Positions 8,413 to 63,953 of a stretch of DNA of 64,000 nucleotides are shown here, one piece after another. This DNA is from Streptomyces globisporus (GTDB lineage: Bacteria; Actinomycetota; Actinomycetes; Streptomycetales; Streptomycetaceae): positions 1 through 64,000 of the forward strand of contig BMTG01000008.1 of NCBI GenBank assembly GCA_014649555.1, given 5' to 3'. Position numbers and translations under genes: made by a program. Positions within the stretch are counted from its first letter, which is position 1; the number at the start of each line of letters is the position of its first letter. The notes under the pieces are model-generated. The model was given only the letters and a program-made list of their open reading frames with translations, searched no databases and had not been told where the DNA came from.

Positions 8413-10158
8413 ATGTCCGTGTTGGAGGAGATGCGGATACGGTCGCTCGGAGTCATCGACGACGCGGTGGTGGAACTGTCACCCGGTTTCACCGCGGTCA
8501 CGGGTGAGACCGGCGCGGGCAAGACCATGGTCGTCACGAGCCTCGGGCTGCTGCTCGGCGGGCGCGCGGACCCCGCTCTCGTACGGGTCGGGGCCAAGGC
8601 CGCGGTCGTCGAGGGCCGGATCACCGTGTCCGACGGCGACGCGGCGGCGCTGCGGGCCGAGGAGGCCGGGGCGGAACTCGACGACGGTGCGCTGCTCATC
8701 AGCCGTACCGTTTCGGCCGAAGGGCGCTCACGGGCCCACCTCGGCGGCAGATCCGTACCGGTGGGGGTCCTGACCGAGCTGGCGGACGAACTCGTCGCCG
8801 TGCACGGCCAGACCGACCAGCAGGGCCTGCTCAAGCCCGCCCGGCAGCGGGGCGCCCTGGACCGGTACGCCGGGGACGGTGTCGAGGTCCCGCACGCCAA
8901 GTACGCGGCCGCCTACCGGCGGCTGCGCGCCGTCGCCACGGAGCTGGAGGAGCTGACCACCCGGGCCCGGGAGCGGGCCCAGGAGGCGGATCTGCTGCGC
9001 TTCGGGCTGAACGAGGTCGCGGCCGTCGAGCCGTTGCCGGGGGAGGACGTCGAGCTGGCCGCCGAAGCGGAGCGGCTCGGGCACGCCGAGGCCCTCGCCT
9101 CCGCCGCCTCCCTCGCGCACACCGCGCTGGCGGGGAACCCGGAGGACCCGGAGAGCGTCGACGCCACCACCGTGGTCGCCGCCGCCGGGCAGGCCCTGGA
9201 CGGGGTCCGGGCCCACGACCCGGCGCTGGCCGCGCTGGCGGACCGGGTGGGCGAGATCTCGATCCTGCTCGCCGACGTCTCCGGCGAGCTGGCCGGGTAC
9301 GCCGATCAGCTCGACGCCGACCCGGTGCGGCTGGCCGTCGTGGAGGAGCGCCGGGCCGCCCTGACCGCCCTGACCCGCAAGTACGGCGAGGACATCGCTG
9401 CCGTGCTGGCCTGGGCCCAGGAGGGTGCGGGCCGGCTCACCGAGCTGGAGGGCGACGACGAGCGGATCGGCGAGCTGACCGCCGAGCGCGATGCGCTGCG
9501 GGCCGAACTCTCCGCCCTGGGGCAGGCCTTGACCGACGCGCGTACGGAGGCCGCCGCGCGGTTCGCCGATGCGGTGACCGAGGAGCTGGCCTCACTCGCC
9601 ATGCCGCACGCCCGGGTCTCCTTCGCCGTCCGGCAGACCGAGGCGGCGGACGAGGCGTCCGGTATCGACATCGGTGGGCGGAGCGTCCTCTACGGCCCTT
9701 CGGGCGCCGACGAGGTGGAACTGCTTCTCGCCCCGCACCCGGGCGCCCAGCCCCGGCCGATCGCCAAGGGCGCGTCGGGCGGTGAGCTGTCCCGGGTGAT
9801 GCTCGCGGTCGAGGTCGTCTTCGCGGGCTCCGACCCCGTACCGACGTATCTCTTCGACGAGGTCGACGCGGGCGTCGGCGGCAAGGCGGCGGTCGAGGTC
9901 GGCCGACGCCTCGCCAAGCTCGCCAAGTCCGCCCAGGTCGTGGTCGTGACCCACTTGCCGCAGGTGGCGGCCTTCGCAGACCGGCAGTTGCTGGTCGAGA
10001 AGACCGTGGACGGCTCGGTGACCCGCAGCGGCGTCACCGTCCTGGAGGGCGAGGACCGGGTCCGGGAGCTGTCCCGGATGCTGGCGGGCCAGGAGGACTC
10101 CGAGACGGCCCGCGCTCATGCCGAGGAGCTGCTGGCCACGGCGCGCGCCGACGGGTGA
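8413..10158 (+). CDS. recN: DNA repair protein RecN
   Basis: A 581-residue SMC-like ATPase for double-strand-break repair. Walker A is GETGAGKTM near residue 36. A long Glu/Arg/Ala-rich coiled-coil region spans about 150-380 with the hinge inside it. The C-terminal head carries the GGELSRVMLA signature and Walker B LFDEVDAGVGG. The ATG at 8413 is used; GTG 8419 and ATG 8431 lie in the same frame and only trim the N-terminus. I see no obvious LexA box in the short upstream gap. It is the last gene of the tlyA-nadK-recN group. Confidence 0.94.
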   Translation: MSVLEEMRIRSLGVIDDAVVELSPGFTAVTGETGAGKTMVVTSLGLLLGGRADPALVRVGAKAAVVEGRITVSDGDAAALRAEEAGAELDDGALLISRTVSAEGRSRAHLGGRSVPVGVLTELADELVAVHGQTDQQGLLKPARQRGALDRYAGDGVEVPHAKYAAAYRRLRAVATELEELTTRARERAQEADLLRFGLNEVAAVEPLPGEDVELAAEAERLGHAEALASAASLAHTALAGNPEDPESVDATTVVAAAGQALDGVRAHDPALAALADRVGEISILLADVSGELAGYADQLDADPVRLAVVEERRAALTALTRKYGEDIAAVLAWAQEGAGRLTELEGDDERIGELTAERDALRAELSALGQALTDARTEAAARFADAVTEELASLAMPHARVSFAVRQTEAADEASGIDIGGRSVLYGPSGADEVELLLAPHPGAQPRPIAKGASGGELSRVMLAVEVVFAGSDPVPTYLFDEVDAGVGGKAAVEVGRRLAKLAKSAQVVVVTHLPQVAAFADRQLLVEKTVDGSVTRSGVTVLEGEDRVRELSRMLAGQEDSETARAHAEELLATARADG

Positions 10159-10187
10159 GGTCCGGGGGCGCGGTGCGCTTCGGTGTG

Positions 10188-10233
10188 GTGGTGCGGGTGC
10201 GGGCGGAGGAATCCCCGCCCGCACCCGCACCAC
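10188..10233 (+). terminator. stem-loop terminator after recN
   Basis: A perfect 19-bp stem: GTGGTGCGGGTGCGGGCGG at 10188-10206 pairs with 10215-10233, with an 8-base loop. There is no U-tract, which is common for Streptomyces terminators. It starts 29 bases after the recN stop. Confidence 0.75.
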
Positions 10234-10408
10234 GCGGATGACGGCAACTCCGCGTACCGTCATTCACCCGTGAGGGTGATGCGGTGTGGTCGGTTGTCGC
10301 CGTGGACGCGGCAGCAACGTTCCGCCGGTGCCGGAACGTGCGTACGGGCTGGCATCCTTGGCGCTGTTCTTGTTCCGCCGACTCCGGAGCCCCGGGGAGC
10401 CAATCAAC

Positions 10409-11506
10409 GTGTCACAGCTGCGTACGGTCCAAGTCCTGGGCGGCGGCAGTGCGGGCAGCAGCGCGCACGTCGGTTCGCTGGCCGCCGGGCTGGTGGCGCG
10501 CGGGGTGCAGGTGACCGTCTGCGCGCCGGCCGCCGTGGACCGCGCCTACGACTTCACGGCGACCGGAGCCCGCTTCCTGCCGGTGCCCCGGCGCAGCGAC
10601 CCGGCTGCCGTCGCCGCGTTGCGGGCGGCCTGCACGGGGGCGGACGTCGTCCACGCCCACGGACTCCACGCGGCCGCCCGCACCGCCCTCGCGCTGAGCG
10701 GGCGCACCGTGCCCCTCGTGACGACCTGGCACACCCGGCGGTACGCGGAAGGCGCCCGCCGCCAGATCCTGCACCTGCTGGAACGGCGCGCCGCACGGGC
10801 GGCGGCCGTGGTCCTCGCCCCCTCCTCCGACCTGGTGGACCTGGCCCGGGAGCGGGGCGCCCGCGATGCCCGGCTCGCCCCCGCCGCCGCCCCGCCCGCG
10901 TACCCGGACGGAGCCGTCGACGAGGGTAAGGTGCGGGCCGAACTGGGTGCGGTGGACCGGCCGTTGCTGATGGCTGTCGGCAGTCTCGTACCGCATCGCG
11001 GCTTCGGCACCCTGCTGGACGCGGCCCGCGCCTGGCGGCGGCTGGACCCCGTGCCGCTGCTCGTCATCGCGGGGGAGGGGCGCGACCGGGAGTCCCTGCA
11101 GCGGCGGATCAGGGACGAGGAATTGCCGGTCTCCCTCATCGGATCCCGGGAGGATGTGGGGGAGTTGGTCGCCGCCGCCGATCTCGCCCTGCTGCCGAGC
11201 CGGTGGGAGGGTCGCTCCCTGCTGGCGCAGGAGGCGCTGCGGTCCGGGGTGCCGCTGGTGGCCGCCGCGCTCGGTGGTGTGCCCGAACTGGTAGGTGAGG
11301 CAGCTGAGTTGGTGCCGTACGGCAACGCCGAGGCCCTGGCCCGTACGGTCGTGAGGCTGCTCGGGGACCCGGCGGCGCGGACCCGGCTCGCCGAGGCCGG
11401 GCGGGCGCAGGCGGCGGGCTGGCCCACCGAGGACGACACGATCGCCCATGTGCTCAGCGTCTACGACGAGTTGGCGCAGCCGCTGGCGACCGGGCGCGGC
11501 CGCTGA
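10409..11506 (+). CDS. GT4-family glycosyltransferase
   Basis: A 365-residue GT-B enzyme. The N-terminal half has the glycine-rich GGGSAGSSAHVGSLAAGL loop and VVHAHGLHAA. The C-terminal half has LMAVGSLVPHRGFGTLLDA, the LPSRWEGRSLLAQEAL donor-site E-x7-E-like motif and GVPELVG. These place it in CAZy GT4. Acceptor and donor are unknown; a cytosolic or membrane-surface lipid glycosylation role is only inference. The GTG at 10409 follows GGGGAG at a good distance and begins at the first conserved strand; the frame is open 120 bases further upstream. It is convergent with the PucR gene, with 61 bases between them. Confidence 0.8.
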   Translation: MSQLRTVQVLGGGSAGSSAHVGSLAAGLVARGVQVTVCAPAAVDRAYDFTATGARFLPVPRRSDPAAVAALRAACTGADVVHAHGLHAAARTALALSGRTVPLVTTWHTRRYAEGARRQILHLLERRAARAAAVVLAPSSDLVDLARERGARDARLAPAAAPPAYPDGAVDEGKVRAELGAVDRPLLMAVGSLVPHRGFGTLLDAARAWRRLDPVPLLVIAGEGRDRESLQRRIRDEELPVSLIGSREDVGELVAAADLALLPSRWEGRSLLAQEALRSGVPLVAAALGGVPELVGEAAELVPYGNAEALARTVVRLLGDPAARTRLAEAGRAQAAGWPTEDDTIAHVLSVYDELAQPLATGRGR

Positions 11507-11567
11507 GCGGACCGGCGAGGCGGCTCAGGGCGTGTCCGGCGGATCAGGGCCGGTCAGGCCGGTGCCG

Positions 11568-13193
11568 TCAGGTCGTGTGGCGGCGGGCCCGTAGCGCCAG
11601 GCTCAGTGCCAGTACCGTCTGCGGGTCGTCCAGGTCCGTGCCCAGCAGCTCGCCGATCCGCGCCAGCCGGTTGTAGAGGGTCTGGCGGTTGAGGTGCAGC
11701 TCGCGGGCGGTCTCCGCCTTGCGGCCCGCGTGCGCCAGATAGGCCTGGAGCGTCGGCAGCAACGGCGGGCGCGAGGTGCGGTCGTGCTCGCGCAGCGGGC
11801 CGATCGCCCGGTTCACGAACGCCGCCAGGTCCGGATGGTCCCGCAGCCGCCACAGCAGCAGGTCGATGTCGAGCCGCCGGGCGTCGTACCAGGGCCGGTC
11901 GTCCAGGCCCTGCGCGGCCGTCGCCGTCTCCGACGCGTGCCGCAGCCCGGCGCCCGCCGCCGCCCAGCCGCCCGCGACGCCGACCACGACCACCGGGTGC
12001 TGCGATCCGGCCCGGTCGAGACCGGCCCGTTCCACTCCCGCCCGCAGCGCCGCCGCCACCCGGTCCGCGACCGCCGTACGCTCGCCCTCCGACCGCAGGC
12101 CCAAGAGCAGTGGAACCCGCCCCTCCACGGGGCGTACGCCGAGCAGCACCGGCACCCCGACCGAGGCCAGCTCCTCCAGCACCGCACGGGCCAGCAGCGC
12201 CCAGTTGCCCGACGGGGACAGCTCGGGGGCCAGCCGCATCACGACCGGGAGCAGCGGTGTCCCGCCGGGGCGGAAGCCGAGCACCCGAGCCTGGGCGGGG
12301 GCGTCCTCCGGGGCGATCCGGCCCTCCGCCAGGTCGGTCAAAAAGTCGCCCCTGCCCCGGGCGGCCAGCTCCTCCTCCTGCCGGGCCTGCATCAGCACGA
12401 CCGCCAGGAGGCCCGCCGCACGCTCCGCCGCCATCCGGTGCACGGTGGCCAGCGGCCCGGCCACCGCGAGCAGCACCAGCCGCGCCCGTACCGAACCGGT
12501 CTCGGGCCCGCCGCCGGGCACGTCCACCAGCAGCGCACCGGTCGGCGGGGACTCCCGGGCCGCCCGGTCGCCGCGCATGCCCTCCCAGACCTGGAGCGGG
12601 TCCGCGCCGACCGGTCCGGTCCCGGTGGACGCCGCGTACAGGAGCTGGCCGTCGGGGGTCTCCAGGAAGACGGGGTTGGCGGTGAAGTCGGCGAGGATCC
12701 CGAGGACCTGCGGCACCCCGCCCCCGTCGAGCAGCGCCCGGGTGGCGCGCCGGTGCACCTCCTCCGCCTGCTGGAGCAGTGCGTAGTGCCCGTTGACGAT
12801 CTCGGTGTGCACCTCCTCGGTCACCGCGACGAACGGCACCTCGCGGTGCAGCTGGACCAGCGGAAGACCGGCCGCGCGGGCGGCGTCCACGATGGAGGCG
12901 GGCAGCCGGCCGAAGCGCGGGCCCAGCTCCACCACCAGGGCCGCGATGCCCCGGTCGGCGAGGCGGCGGACGAAGGCGCGCTGTTCGGCGGGGCGGGCGC
13001 CCAGGCCGAGCCCGGTCGTCAGGAGCAGCTCGCCTCCTTTGAGGAGCGAGGCGATGTTCGGGACCTCGCCCGCGTGCACCCACCGCACCGTACGGTTCAG
13101 CCGGTCGGCGCCGGCCACCACCTCCGGGAGCCCGGCGCGCAGCCCCGGCAGCTCCAGCGCCCGCTGCACGGTGATCCCGCTGTGGCTCTCCAC
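11568..13193 (-). CDS. PucR family transcriptional regulator
   Basis: A 541-residue regulator. The N-terminal PucR domain covers about residues 8-125 (ITVQRALELPGLRAGLPEVVAG; GGELLLTTGLGLG). The middle is a GGDEF-like/GAF-like sensory region. A C-terminal PucR-type helix-turn-helix covers about 480-535 (LQAYLAHAGRKAETARELHLNRQTLYNRL). PucR proteins regulate purine or nitrogen catabolism in Bacillus, but the Streptomyces members are numerous and mostly uncharacterised. No purine gene is adjacent, so the target is open. The ATG at 13193 begins MESHSGITVQRAL, where the domain begins. Confidence 0.88.
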   Translation of the reverse strand: MESHSGITVQRALELPGLRAGLPEVVAGADRLNRTVRWVHAGEVPNIASLLKGGELLLTTGLGLGARPAEQRAFVRRLADRGIAALVVELGPRFGRLPASIVDAARAAGLPLVQLHREVPFVAVTEEVHTEIVNGHYALLQQAEEVHRRATRALLDGGGVPQVLGILADFTANPVFLETPDGQLLYAASTGTGPVGADPLQVWEGMRGDRAARESPPTGALLVDVPGGGPETGSVRARLVLLAVAGPLATVHRMAAERAAGLLAVVLMQARQEEELAARGRGDFLTDLAEGRIAPEDAPAQARVLGFRPGGTPLLPVVMRLAPELSPSGNWALLARAVLEELASVGVPVLLGVRPVEGRVPLLLGLRSEGERTAVADRVAAALRAGVERAGLDRAGSQHPVVVVGVAGGWAAAGAGLRHASETATAAQGLDDRPWYDARRLDIDLLLWRLRDHPDLAAFVNRAIGPLREHDRTSRPPLLPTLQAYLAHAGRKAETARELHLNRQTLYNRLARIGELLGTDLDDPQTVLALSLALRARRHTT

Positions 13194-13316
13194 GTACCCG
13201 GCCCGCTTTCCCCTTGTTCCACGCCCGTACCCCGGGCGTCCGTCCTGTTCAGGACGCTACCGCCCGGAGCCCGGGGTGCGCATGGCAGGGGAGGCCCGGA
13301 TGCCGTGGTGGGGCCG

Positions 13317-13661
13317 TCACCGCGCGGCCAGCAACCCCACCAGCGCCCCCCGGCTCCGCCGCAACGCCTCGATCTGCTCGTCCAGGTCCGCCAGTTCCCC
13401 GTCCAGGATCGCCCGCAGCTCCGCACACCAGTCGAAGCCCGCCTGCTCGCCCCGGGCACACGGCAGCACCTGACGGATCACCTCGGTGGAGAGCCCGGCC
13501 CGCAGCAGCGCCCGGATCTTCCGCACGGAGGCGACCGCGTCCTCGTCGTACGCGCGGTAGCCGTTCGTCCCCCGCCTCGCCTCCAGCAGCCCCTGCGCCT
13601 CGTAGTACCGCAACGACCGCGCGCTGACGCCCGTCCGCCGCGACAACTCCCCGATCAGCAT
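13317..13661 (-). CDS. MerR family transcriptional regulator
   Basis: A 114-residue MerR-type activator. The winged helix begins at once (MLIGELSRRTGVSARSLRYYEAQGLL), then NGYRAYDEDAV, then a dimerisation helix containing DEQIEALRRSRGALVGLL. The start at 13661 removes an unconserved upstream extension. Two Cys residues (LPCARGEQ, DWCAEL) lie where metal- or thiol-sensing relatives bind ligand, but spacing is not diagnostic. It is divergent from the class IV aminotransferase, and the 59-bp gap holds a textbook MerR-type promoter, so it very likely controls that gene. Confidence 0.88.
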   Translation of the reverse strand: MLIGELSRRTGVSARSLRYYEAQGLLEARRGTNGYRAYDEDAVASVRKIRALLRAGLSTEVIRQVLPCARGEQAGFDWCAELRAILDGELADLDEQIEALRRSRGALVGLLAAR

Positions 13662-16806: not shown

Positions 16807-18474
<1,668 letters not shown>

Positions 18475-60339: not shown

Positions 60340-62293
<1,954 letters not shown>

Positions 62294-62480: not shown

Positions 62481-62960
62481 GTGTATCGCATCGGAGTGAC
62501 CGGTCACCGCTCCATCCCCGCCGAGGCGGAGGCCCATGTGCTCGCCGGAATGCGAGCCGCTCTCTGCGGCCTCGACCGCCCCAGCCAGGCCCTCTCCAGC
62601 CTGGCGGTCGGCGCCGACCAGCTCTTCGCCGACCTCGCCCTCACCTGCGGCGCCGAACTGACCGCCGTGATCCCCAGCCGCGACTACGAGGCCTGTTTCG
62701 ACAACGCCGCCGACCTCGCCCGCTACCGGACGCTCAAGGCGCGCGCGGCACGGGAGGTCCGGCTCGACTTCCCGCACTCCACCGACGAGGCGTACTACGC
62801 GGCGGGCGCCTACATCGCCGACCACTGCGACCGGCTGCTCGCGGTCTGGGACGGGCTCCCCGCCCGGGGCCTCGGCGGTACGGGCGACATCGTGACGTAC
62901 GCCCGCACGCTCGGCCGCCCCGTCACCGTGATCTGGCGCGACGGGGTGCTGCGCGGCTGA
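62481..62960 (+). CDS. SLOG-like Rossmann-fold nucleotide-binding protein
   Basis: A 159-residue cytosolic protein. The first strand and loop YRIGVTGHRS match the G-x-T/S-G-H-R start of the SLOG/DprA-like superfamily. ALSSLAVGADQLFADLAL is the GADxLA motif, and AVWDGLPARGLGGTGDIVTYART is the terminal G-x-G-G-T loop. SLOG domains bind or cleave nucleotides. GTG 62481 follows GGTAGCAGG weakly; a CACGACG/CGTCGTG hairpin (62398-62414) lies upstream. It is convergent, 24 bases from a SLATT-type membrane protein, a pairing known for predicted nucleotide-signalling effectors. Confidence 0.82.
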   Translation: MYRIGVTGHRSIPAEAEAHVLAGMRAALCGLDRPSQALSSLAVGADQLFADLALTCGAELTAVIPSRDYEACFDNAADLARYRTLKARAAREVRLDFPHSTDEAYYAAGAYIADHCDRLLAVWDGLPARGLGGTGDIVTYARTLGRPVTVIWRDGVLRG

Positions 62961-62984
62961 CCCGGGCCACGGCGGGGGAGAGGG

Positions 62985-63953
62985 TCACACGCGGTGTCTG
63001 ACCAGCCAGTCGGTGTGCTCGGGCGACACGATCCGCTCGGTCTCGAACACCGCCGCCGGCCAGTGACGTTCGGTCAAGGTCGTCTCCATGGCGGCCTGCA
63101 TCGACTCCAGGTCCTCCTCCACCAGCGAGTGCGCCGAGATCAGCGGATGGTGCCGGCGCATCTCGTTCCAGGCGAGACAGGCCGCCGCCGCCGCGGACAG
63201 CGCCCCCGTCAGACCGAACGACCGGCCCACCCCGAAGGCCTGGAGCACACTCAGCGCCAGCGCCGGGAGCGTCAGCGCGACAATGGCGCCCGACCACATG
63301 AGCGCCCCACGCCGGGACGCCTGCTGACGTCGGCGGTACCAACGGCGCTGTTCGATGAGCCGGTCCCGTACGTACGTCTCCTTGCGGACCGTGTACGCCT
63401 TGTTCCGCAAGGCGCGCATGGACTCCGTGATGAGCCCGCCGGAATCCGGCAGCTCCTCGCGGGGGTCGGCCCAGCCCACCTTCCGCAGCTCCTGCAGACC
63501 GTCCTCCAGACGATTGGCGAACAGCGCCTCCGGGTGCTCGGACGCGCTGTCGAACGGAGCGCCGTGCACCGCGTAGCGCCAGCAGTTCGATTTGATGAAC
63601 TCCGCTGCGGAGCGGTTGAGTTGCCAATGCGACTTTGCTTTGCGCTGGGAGGCGAGGAAGGTCGTGAAGAGCACGCCCAGATAGGCCAGCACCGCCGCGC
63701 CGTACAGCGCCCGGGCCGCGGGACCGTCGTCGGCGTGCCAGGGGAGCGCCGCGGGCACCGTGCCGGCCACGAGCAGCGCCAGCTGCACCCGGGTGGTGTT
63801 CACGGCCTCGCGCTGGCGGGCCACGGCGACCGCGTCCGTGTGATGGAACAGCTCGGGCAGGTCGTCGTTCCTGAAGACCATGGATCTCAGCGGCTCGGGC
63901 AGCGCCGTCACGGTCGCCTCCGTCTGCAGTTGTCGTATGACCCGGCCGACCAT
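62985..63953 (-). CDS. DUF4231/SLATT-type four-helix membrane protein
   Basis: A protein of about 323 residues with two paired membrane segments: VQLALLVAGTVPAALPW with ALYGAAVLAYLGVLFTTFL, and later GALMWSGAIVALTLPALALSV with GLTGALSAAAAACLAW. Between them lies a long charged helical region (KSHWQLNRSAAEFIKSNCWRYAVHGAPF; RKETYVRDRLIEQRRWYRRRQQASRR). This is the DUF4231/SLATT layout, 2-TM effectors next to SLOG or SMODS genes. ATG 63953 is used; GTG 63956 and GTG 63977 are alternatives and the ribosome site is poor. The promoter lies at or beyond the window edge. Confidence 0.75.
   Translation of the reverse strand: MVGRVIRQLQTEATVTALPEPLRSMVFRNDDLPELFHHTDAVAVARQREAVNTTRVQLALLVAGTVPAALPWHADDGPAARALYGAAVLAYLGVLFTTFLASQRKAKSHWQLNRSAAEFIKSNCWRYAVHGAPFDSASEHPEALFANRLEDGLQELRKVGWADPREELPDSGGLITESMRALRNKAYTVRKETYVRDRLIEQRRWYRRRQQASRRGALMWSGAIVALTLPALALSVLQAFGVGRSFGLTGALSAAAAACLAWNEMRRHHPLISAHSLVEEDLESMQAAMETTLTERHWPAAVFETERIVSPEHTDWLVRHRV

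What the first reader, a model, noticed from the sequence alone, without database searches (positions are those of the whole stretch)
62481..63953. SLOG-like protein convergent with a DUF4231/SLATT membrane protein
The sequence shows a GxTGHR...GADxLA...GLGGTGD Rossmann protein facing a four-helix membrane protein with a charged cytosolic helix. SLOG and SLATT domains are established members of predicted nucleotide-centred conflict systems, where SLOG senses or makes a nucleotide and SLATT forms pores. Here the genes are on opposite strands, tail to tail 24 bases apart, which is unlike the usual operon. A stand-alone stress or phage-response module is inferred.
Basis: partly seen in the sequence, partly recalled or inferred. 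Interest (0 to 1): 0.75.

Follow-up and report, generated by a model that had tools for sequence, protein, structure and literature searches.

The report
SLOG–SLATT effector arm of Fxs systems
In Streptomyces a gene whose product is predicted to have a nucleotide-binding SLOG fold faces, tail to tail, a gene for a double-SLATT membrane protein, and the two sit beside the genes of a modified-peptide (FxSxx-COOH) conflict system, for which they likely act as a nucleotide-triggered membrane effector.

The parts
62481..62960 (+). SLOG protein gene (159 aa, GTG start), predicted YpsA/DprA-type Rossmann fold; GHR at residues 8-10, GAD 44-46, GGTGD 132-136
62961..62984 (.). 24-base gap between the two stop codons; no terminator-like site found
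62985..63911 (-). double-SLATT membrane protein gene (308 aa from GTG 63911; in-frame alternatives ATG 63953 and GTG 63977)
63381..63857 (-). SLATT_3 domain (residues 33-191 of the 322-aa form)
   Evidence: PF18184 124.8 bits, cut-off 26.3; NF033610 182.2 bits; same place
63006..63374 (-). SLATT_1 domain (residues 194-316 of the 322-aa form)
   Evidence: PF18181 116.3 bits, cut-off 26.3; NF033634 98.5 bits
63912..64000 (.). start of the intergenic stretch between the SLATT gene and the Fxs operon, which lies past the window end in L003 (window = L003 + 54999): fxsA L003 9543-9707, fxsB 9738-12068, fxsC 12118-13482, fxsT to 17414, hydrolase 17462-18349 (-)

Best explanation
The convergent SLOG–SLATT pair is likely the optional, nucleotide-triggered membrane-effector arm of the FxSxx-COOH (Fxs) conflict system whose operon begins about 0.5 kb beyond the window. 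Proposed order of events, all inferred: FxsB, named by NCBIfam as a cyclophane-forming maturase, modifies the FxsA peptide; the peptide and the STAND/TPR protein FxsT set a trigger; the TIR protein FxsC makes an NAD-derived nucleotide; the YpsA-type SLOG protein binds that nucleotide and releases or activates the four-helix SLATT protein, which breaches the membrane and stops the cell. Shown here: genes, domains, predicted folds, motif conservation and linkage. Not shown: ligand, interaction, pore activity or any phenotype.
For: Pairing: 42 of 42 genus genomes, all convergent. Linkage: FxsB beside 51 of 53 pair loci examined; 89 of 150 listed family SLATT hits within 10 kb of FxsC, 121 within 20 kb, about 0.45 expected at 10 kb. 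It holds with unrelated flanks, with an inverted operon in 11 loci, and with divergent Fxs classes in L100, L138 and L149. Dependence: 42 of 42 pair genomes have FxsB over its cut-off, against 52 of 108 others. FxsC keeps the TIR-motif Glu in 48 of 49 aligned pair loci (one gap); the FxsT TIR has V or L there in 46 of 49. SLOG is YpsA-like with invariant G44 and D46. Distant double-SLATT proteins sit beside TIR genes in L129, L105, L108 and L139. Print predicts SLATT to be a nucleotide-responsive effector (PMC7159879, PMC9503650, passages).
Against: No biochemical or genetic evidence. SLOG is on the opposite strand and not in the operon. In G057 the pair stands without Fxs within the fetched 16 kb. 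In genus g249 SLATT lies by FxsC with no SLOG adjacent. 29 of 150 listed SLATT hits have no listed FxsC within 20 kb. Many genomes have FxsB without the pair. SLATT orphans occur beside genes with no TIR (L140, L142, L136 neighbours). The SLATT model has no PDB match at E <= 0.001. Counts are not corrected for phylogeny.
Confidence: 0.45

Rival explanations
1. SLATT, with SLOG as its nucleotide-sensing regulator, is an immunity or export protein that protects the producer from, or moves, the modified FxsA peptide rather than an effector.
For: SLATT is the one membrane protein conserved beside the precursor and maturase genes; in 11 loci it is co-directional behind fxsT.
Against: 52 of 108 genomes without the pair have FxsB, so immunity would have to be dispensable; relatives sit beside TIR genes with no Fxs peptide system found by tblastn (L129, L139).
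Confidence: 0.15
2. SLOG is the enzyme that makes or destroys the nucleotide signal (or acts as brake on SLATT), and FxsC/FxsT act otherwise.
For: SLOG proteins are predicted in print as sensors or as signal-making enzymes (PMC6459960, PMC9503650, passages). The GGT(G/A)(D/E) loop is strongly conserved.
Against: The Glu that ends the LOG motif PGGxGTxxE (recalled) is not kept: residue 139 is variable in 29 sequences. Closest folds are YpsA and DprA, ahead of LOG. FxsC carries a better-kept catalytic motif.
Confidence: 0.2
3. SLOG–SLATT is a self-contained module, that merely shares an island with Fxs.
For: The pair persists without nearby Fxs in G057 (L078), and lies 17 kb from FxsC in G596; SLOG–SLATT modules are known elsewhere (recalled, and named in PMC7159879 passages).
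Against: 51 of 53 pair loci have FxsB alongside; arrangement changes keep the link.
Confidence: 0.15
4. The adjacency is inherited chromosome order without functional meaning.
For: In the window's own lineage the trypsin-like flank is conserved too (family F0, 33 member genes).
Against: Other lineages have unrelated flanks around the same cassette; co-presence and co-absence are exact in 150 genomes at the cut-offs used; SLATT–FxsC linkage is family-wide in other gene orders.
Confidence: 0.05

Closest known systems
SLOG/SLATT nucleotide-centred conflict systems (Burroughs et al. 2015; paper not held, known here through later papers)
   Same: A SLOG protein paired with a SLATT membrane protein predicted to respond to a nucleotide signal.
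   Different: Here the pair is convergent, SLATT is a SLATT_3+SLATT_1 tandem, and the pair belongs to Fxs loci.
FxSxx-COOH peptide-processing systems (Fxs; stand-alone actinobacterial type in PMC7159879, section 24 read)
   Same: FxSxx precursor, radical-SAM/SPASM maturase, AP-ATPase with TIR, TPR and MinD/ParA-like domain.
   Different: That text names SLATT only with GAP1 systems; here a SLATT protein, in Streptomyces with a SLOG partner, is a frequent neighbour.
Thoeris (ThsB TIR with ThsA SLOG)
   Different: SLOG is a free 159-aa protein and the effector is a separate SLATT protein; a peptide and STAND protein sit upstream in the proposed chain.
TIR–SLATT gene pairs of some firmicute phages (PMC9503650, passages)
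   Same: A TIR gene beside a SLATT effector; L129, from another family of the phylum, holds such an overlapping pair.
   Different: Here the TIR is FxsC inside a peptide system and a SLOG protein is added.
YpsA (DUF1273) of Bacillus subtilis
   Different: 18% identity; YpsA is studied in cell division and oxidative stress, not beside SLATT.

Membership tests
SLOG superfamily | SLOG-type Rossmann fold | tested here: met
SLOG superfamily | match to a curated sequence profile | tested here: inconclusive
   0 families in Pfam, NCBIfam and PADLOC; a paralog (L111) gives only a weak YpsA match, E 0.015
SLOG, YpsA clade | GxD/E substrate-binding motif | tested here: met
   G44 and D46 invariant in 29 sequences; motif from PMC6459960 passages; residue correspondence inferred
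SLOG, LOG-type phosphoribohydrolase | PGGxGTxxE motif (recalled) | tested here: not met
   GGT(G/A)(D/E) followed by variable residue 139
SLATT | SLATT profile over curated cut-off | tested here: met
   SLATT_3 124.8 bits, SLATT_1 116.3 bits; NCBIfam 182.2 and 98.5 bits
SLATT | two transmembrane segments per domain | tested here: met
   Four hydrophobic segments; two strong (1.86, 2.06), two weaker (1.31, 1.25)
SLATT | membrane pore activity | not testable with these tools
   needs expression and membrane assays
Fxs (FxSxx-COOH) system, neighbouring operon | FxsA, FxsB, FxsC, FxsT together | tested here: met
   FxsA ends FNSAL; FxsB 601.3/370, FxsC 266.8/55, FxsT 1048.6/300 bits over cut-off
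Fxs system with the SLOG–SLATT pair as a component | conserved linkage beyond synteny | tested here: met
   51 of 53 pair loci with FxsB; varied flanks and orders; not tree-corrected
Fxs system with the SLOG–SLATT pair as a component | shared function | not testable with these tools
   needs genetics and biochemistry
Thoeris | ThsA with its effector domain fused to SLOG, beside ThsB (definition recalled) | tested here: not met
   SLOG is a single-domain 159-aa protein

The most novel reading that the evidence does not exclude
A cyclophane-peptide immune system that fires through a nucleotide-gated membrane effector: the Fxs peptide/STAND trigger drives the TIR protein FxsC to make an NAD-derived messenger, a free-standing YpsA-type SLOG protein reads it, and a tandem SLATT protein opens the membrane, joining a RiPP system and cyclic-ADP-ribose-type signalling in one bacterial cassette.
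Probability: 0.35. Interest if true: 0.8.

Novelty: new variant of a known kind. Interest (0 to 1): 0.62.

Why it matters
FxsB is common in Streptomyces (over its cut-off in 94 of 150 genomes), but I found no tested role for Fxs systems in the papers I could search. Tying them to a TIR–SLOG–SLATT chain would make that question directly testable: does FxsC make a nucleotide, does SLOG bind it, does SLATT permeabilise the membrane? It would also give SLATT proteins, described in the passages I read as predicted effectors, a defined trigger in genetically tractable bacteria.

Tried and rejected
Sequence profiles for the SLOG protein (Pfam, NCBIfam, PADLOC) gave nothing; for SLATT, PADLOC gave only PDC-M09A at E 0.019. 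A profile search of PDB sequences gave E 0.08 or worse for SLOG, with elongation factor P first and DprA third, and nothing for SLATT. The SLATT model against PDB: no match at E <= 0.001; helical pore-forming toxins rank first but at TM 0.25 or less and rmsd of 28 or more over the top rows, so I draw nothing from them. No terminator-like or sigma-70-like site was found in L003 7300-9800, and the 71-base stretch over the gap folds worse than most shuffles (191 of 200 fold at least as well).

Phylum survey: 5 of 396 genomes with SLATT and 5 of 396 with FxsC, but at most 5 and 7 candidates per genome were scored, so absences are weak evidence.

Considered and set aside: the trypsin-like neighbour as part of the system (conserved mainly in the window's own flank type); SLOG as a LOG-type enzyme (motif not kept); the FxsT TIR as signal maker (V or L at the Glu position in 46 of 49).

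Errors of mine: the FxsA and trypsin queries were translated in the wrong frame. Their hits are not used; fxsA was found again and the flank genes. The gene caller is crude. No chance control was run for the FxSxx-ending peptides.

Papers: in searches I saw listings only, apart from PMC7159879, PMC9503650 and PMC6459960, which I opened. Some listed papers that mention SLATT or DUF4231 were not opened.

Full report
What is in the window. The + strand ORF 62481-62960 encodes 159 aa and the - strand ORF ending at 62985 encodes a membrane protein; 24 bases lie between the stops. The closest named homologs of the first protein in the list are Streptomyces proteins called hypothetical. The membrane protein is a tandem of two different SLATT domains, SLATT_3 and SLATT_1, each well over its cut-off. 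Its start is more likely GTG 63911 than 63953: GGAGG stands 5 bases upstream, some orthologs start there, and the model is of low confidence before it.

Is the pairing real? In 150 genomes of the genus, 84 have any SLOG match and 49 any SLATT_3 match. Taking orthologs at cut-offs that I chose (SLOG E <= 2.4e-42; SLATT_3 at 120 bits or more), 42 genomes have SLOG and 46 have SLATT, and all 42 SLOG genomes are among the 46. The other four (G064, G077, G086, G118) have divergent SLATT proteins, 26-30% identical to the window's. All 42 pairs are convergent and 39 have their domain hits within 1.2 kb; in G075, G028 and G079 the distance is 1.9, 4.4 and 11.1 kb. The Fisher p of 5e-33 ignores phylogeny. 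Among 41 loci with both genes in the fetched stretch, 39 have gaps of 4 to 204 bases between stops; the other two have 1490 and 3989.

What lies next door. In L003 (window position = L003 + 54999) a 54-codon ORF ending FNSAL (9543-9707; a longer in-frame start gives 68 codons) fits the FxSxx-COOH precursor FxsA. Then come FxsB (601.3 bits, cut-off 370, with the 'inactivated beta-hydroxylase extension' NF040587), FxsC (266.8, cut-off 55), FxsT (1048.6, cut-off 300) and an alpha/beta-hydrolase on the other strand. FxsC has a TIR_2 domain; FxsT has AAA_31, TIR_2, NB-ARC and TPR. NCBIfam calls FxsB a cyclophane-forming maturase.

Is the pair tied to Fxs? I fetched stretches around all 42 genus pairs. 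FxsB is beside the pair or its SLATT gene in 41 of 42, the exception being G057 (L078); in G028 and G139 short contigs cut the operon, and in G079 the SLOG gene lies outside the stretch. Beyond that set I fetched 23 loci: 21 chosen from the 150 listed family hits, plus two phylum hits. Of these 23, 11 hold SLATT and SLOG together, and 10 of the 11 have FxsB alongside. For the eleventh, G596, FxsC lies 17 kb away. So FxsB is beside 51 of 53 pair loci examined. A pattern search found a peptide ending FxSxx within 700 bases upstream of FxsB in 47 of the 51 (no chance control).

Not just synteny. Genes on the SLOG side fall into several unrelated sets: a trypsin-like gene region in the window's own lineage (family F0, 33 member genes), another set in L094, L098, L099, L101 and L103, and unmatched flanks in L102, L104, L132, L133, L134, L136, L137 and L149. 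In 11 loci the Fxs operon is inverted and SLATT is co-directional behind fxsT: 50-80 bases after its stop in nine, overlapping by alignment in two. In L100, L138 and L149 the Fxs proteins belong to other classes (FxsT best identity 0.46 or less, FxsC 0.32 or less) while SLOG and SLATT remain 0.59-0.70 identical to those of other lineages.

Across 200 family genomes (17 genera), 112 have SLATT, 118 FxsC and 148 some SLOG. Of 150 listed SLATT hits (103 genomes), 89 are within 10 kb of a listed FxsC hit and 121 within 20 kb, against about 0.45 expected at 10 kb; 29 are not. At least one of those 29 (G619) does have FxsC beside it by tblastn, so the truncated list undercounts. In genus g249 I read five fetched SLATT loci: L141 has SLATT by FxsC and FxsT, L142, L143 and L144 do not, and none of them has an adjacent SLOG (L141 and L142 are one genome). 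By coordinates, 14 SLATT hits of g249 have a SLOG 21-28 kb away, 13 of them with FxsC about 6 kb away. L145-L148, from other genera, have SLATT beside the hydrolase and FxsT.

Direction of dependence. All 42 pair genomes have FxsB over its cut-off, but so do 52 of the 108 genomes without the pair (counted). The pair therefore looks like an accessory of Fxs, not the reverse. TIGR04269 covers more than one type of FxsB, so this is a loose measure.

A candidate signal chain. In FxsC the S-x-x-C-x-x-E motif of TIR NADases (motif recalled) keeps its Glu in 48 of 49 aligned pair loci (the other is a gap) and in 10 of 10 other Fxs loci. In the FxsT TIR the Cys position is Ala in 47 of 49 and the Glu position is V or L in 46 of 49 (registered on the motif by me). 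So FxsC is the likelier enzyme. Distant double-SLATT proteins elsewhere sit beside TIR genes: overlapping with one in L129, and beside TIR–WD40 genes in L105, L108 and L139; in L140, L142 and L136 the neighbours scanned had no TIR. Print already predicts SLATT to respond to nucleotide signals, and YpsA-clade SLOG domains to sense or act on ADP-ribose derivatives (PMC7159879 and PMC9503650, passages). Hence the proposed order FxsC, nucleotide, SLOG, SLATT. Every link in that chain is inference.

Novelty. SLOG–SLATT modules and Fxs systems are both described. In PMC7159879 I read section 24 and the three places that name SLATT: stand-alone FxS systems are described with an AP-ATPase bearing a MinD/ParA-like domain, and SLATT only with GAP1 systems. 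Searches for FxSxx-COOH, FxsB with cyclophane, FxsA/B/C with SLATT, SLATT with radical SAM, and DUF4231 showed no title or abstract on the union (listings). I call it a new variant of a known kind.

Limits.

Noticed in passing
window 61364-62293 (+): Secreted trypsin/alpha-lytic-type protease gene (PF02983, PF00089) just upstream of SLOG on the same strand; its family is a frequent flank in the window's own lineage.
   Followed up: partly
L111 8625-9113 and 9532-10008; L115 8964-9449 and 10145-10621: Two different SLOG paralogs in tandem, about 35-42% identical to the window's SLOG, with no SLATT or Fxs nearby by tblastn.
   Followed up: no
L129 7277-9282 (another family of the phylum): A double-SLATT gene overlaps a downstream TIR gene (TIR_2 64.8 bits): a two-gene TIR–SLATT unit.
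   Followed up: partly
L105, L108, L139: Double-SLATT genes beside genes for TIR–WD40 proteins; in L108 and L139 divergent and about 120 bases apart, in L105 the crude gene call overlaps.
   Followed up: partly
G651:C1:4925393-4964308 (parts in L141, L142): Two SLATT genes pointing inward bracket about 38 kb that holds two FxsC hits, in a genome of genus g249; other g249 genomes have similar spacings.
   Followed up: no
L078 (G057): SLOG–SLATT kept without Fxs in the fetched 16 kb; a trypsin-like gene lies on the SLATT side instead.
   Followed up: no
G028 (L084), G075 (L070), G079: SLOG and SLATT still face each other but are 4.4, 1.9 and 11.1 kb apart; L084 has several other genes between them.
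   Followed up: partly
G000:C4:420003-420290 (L002): The window's own genome has a second, more distant DUF4231 match (29.1 bits) elsewhere.
   Followed up: no
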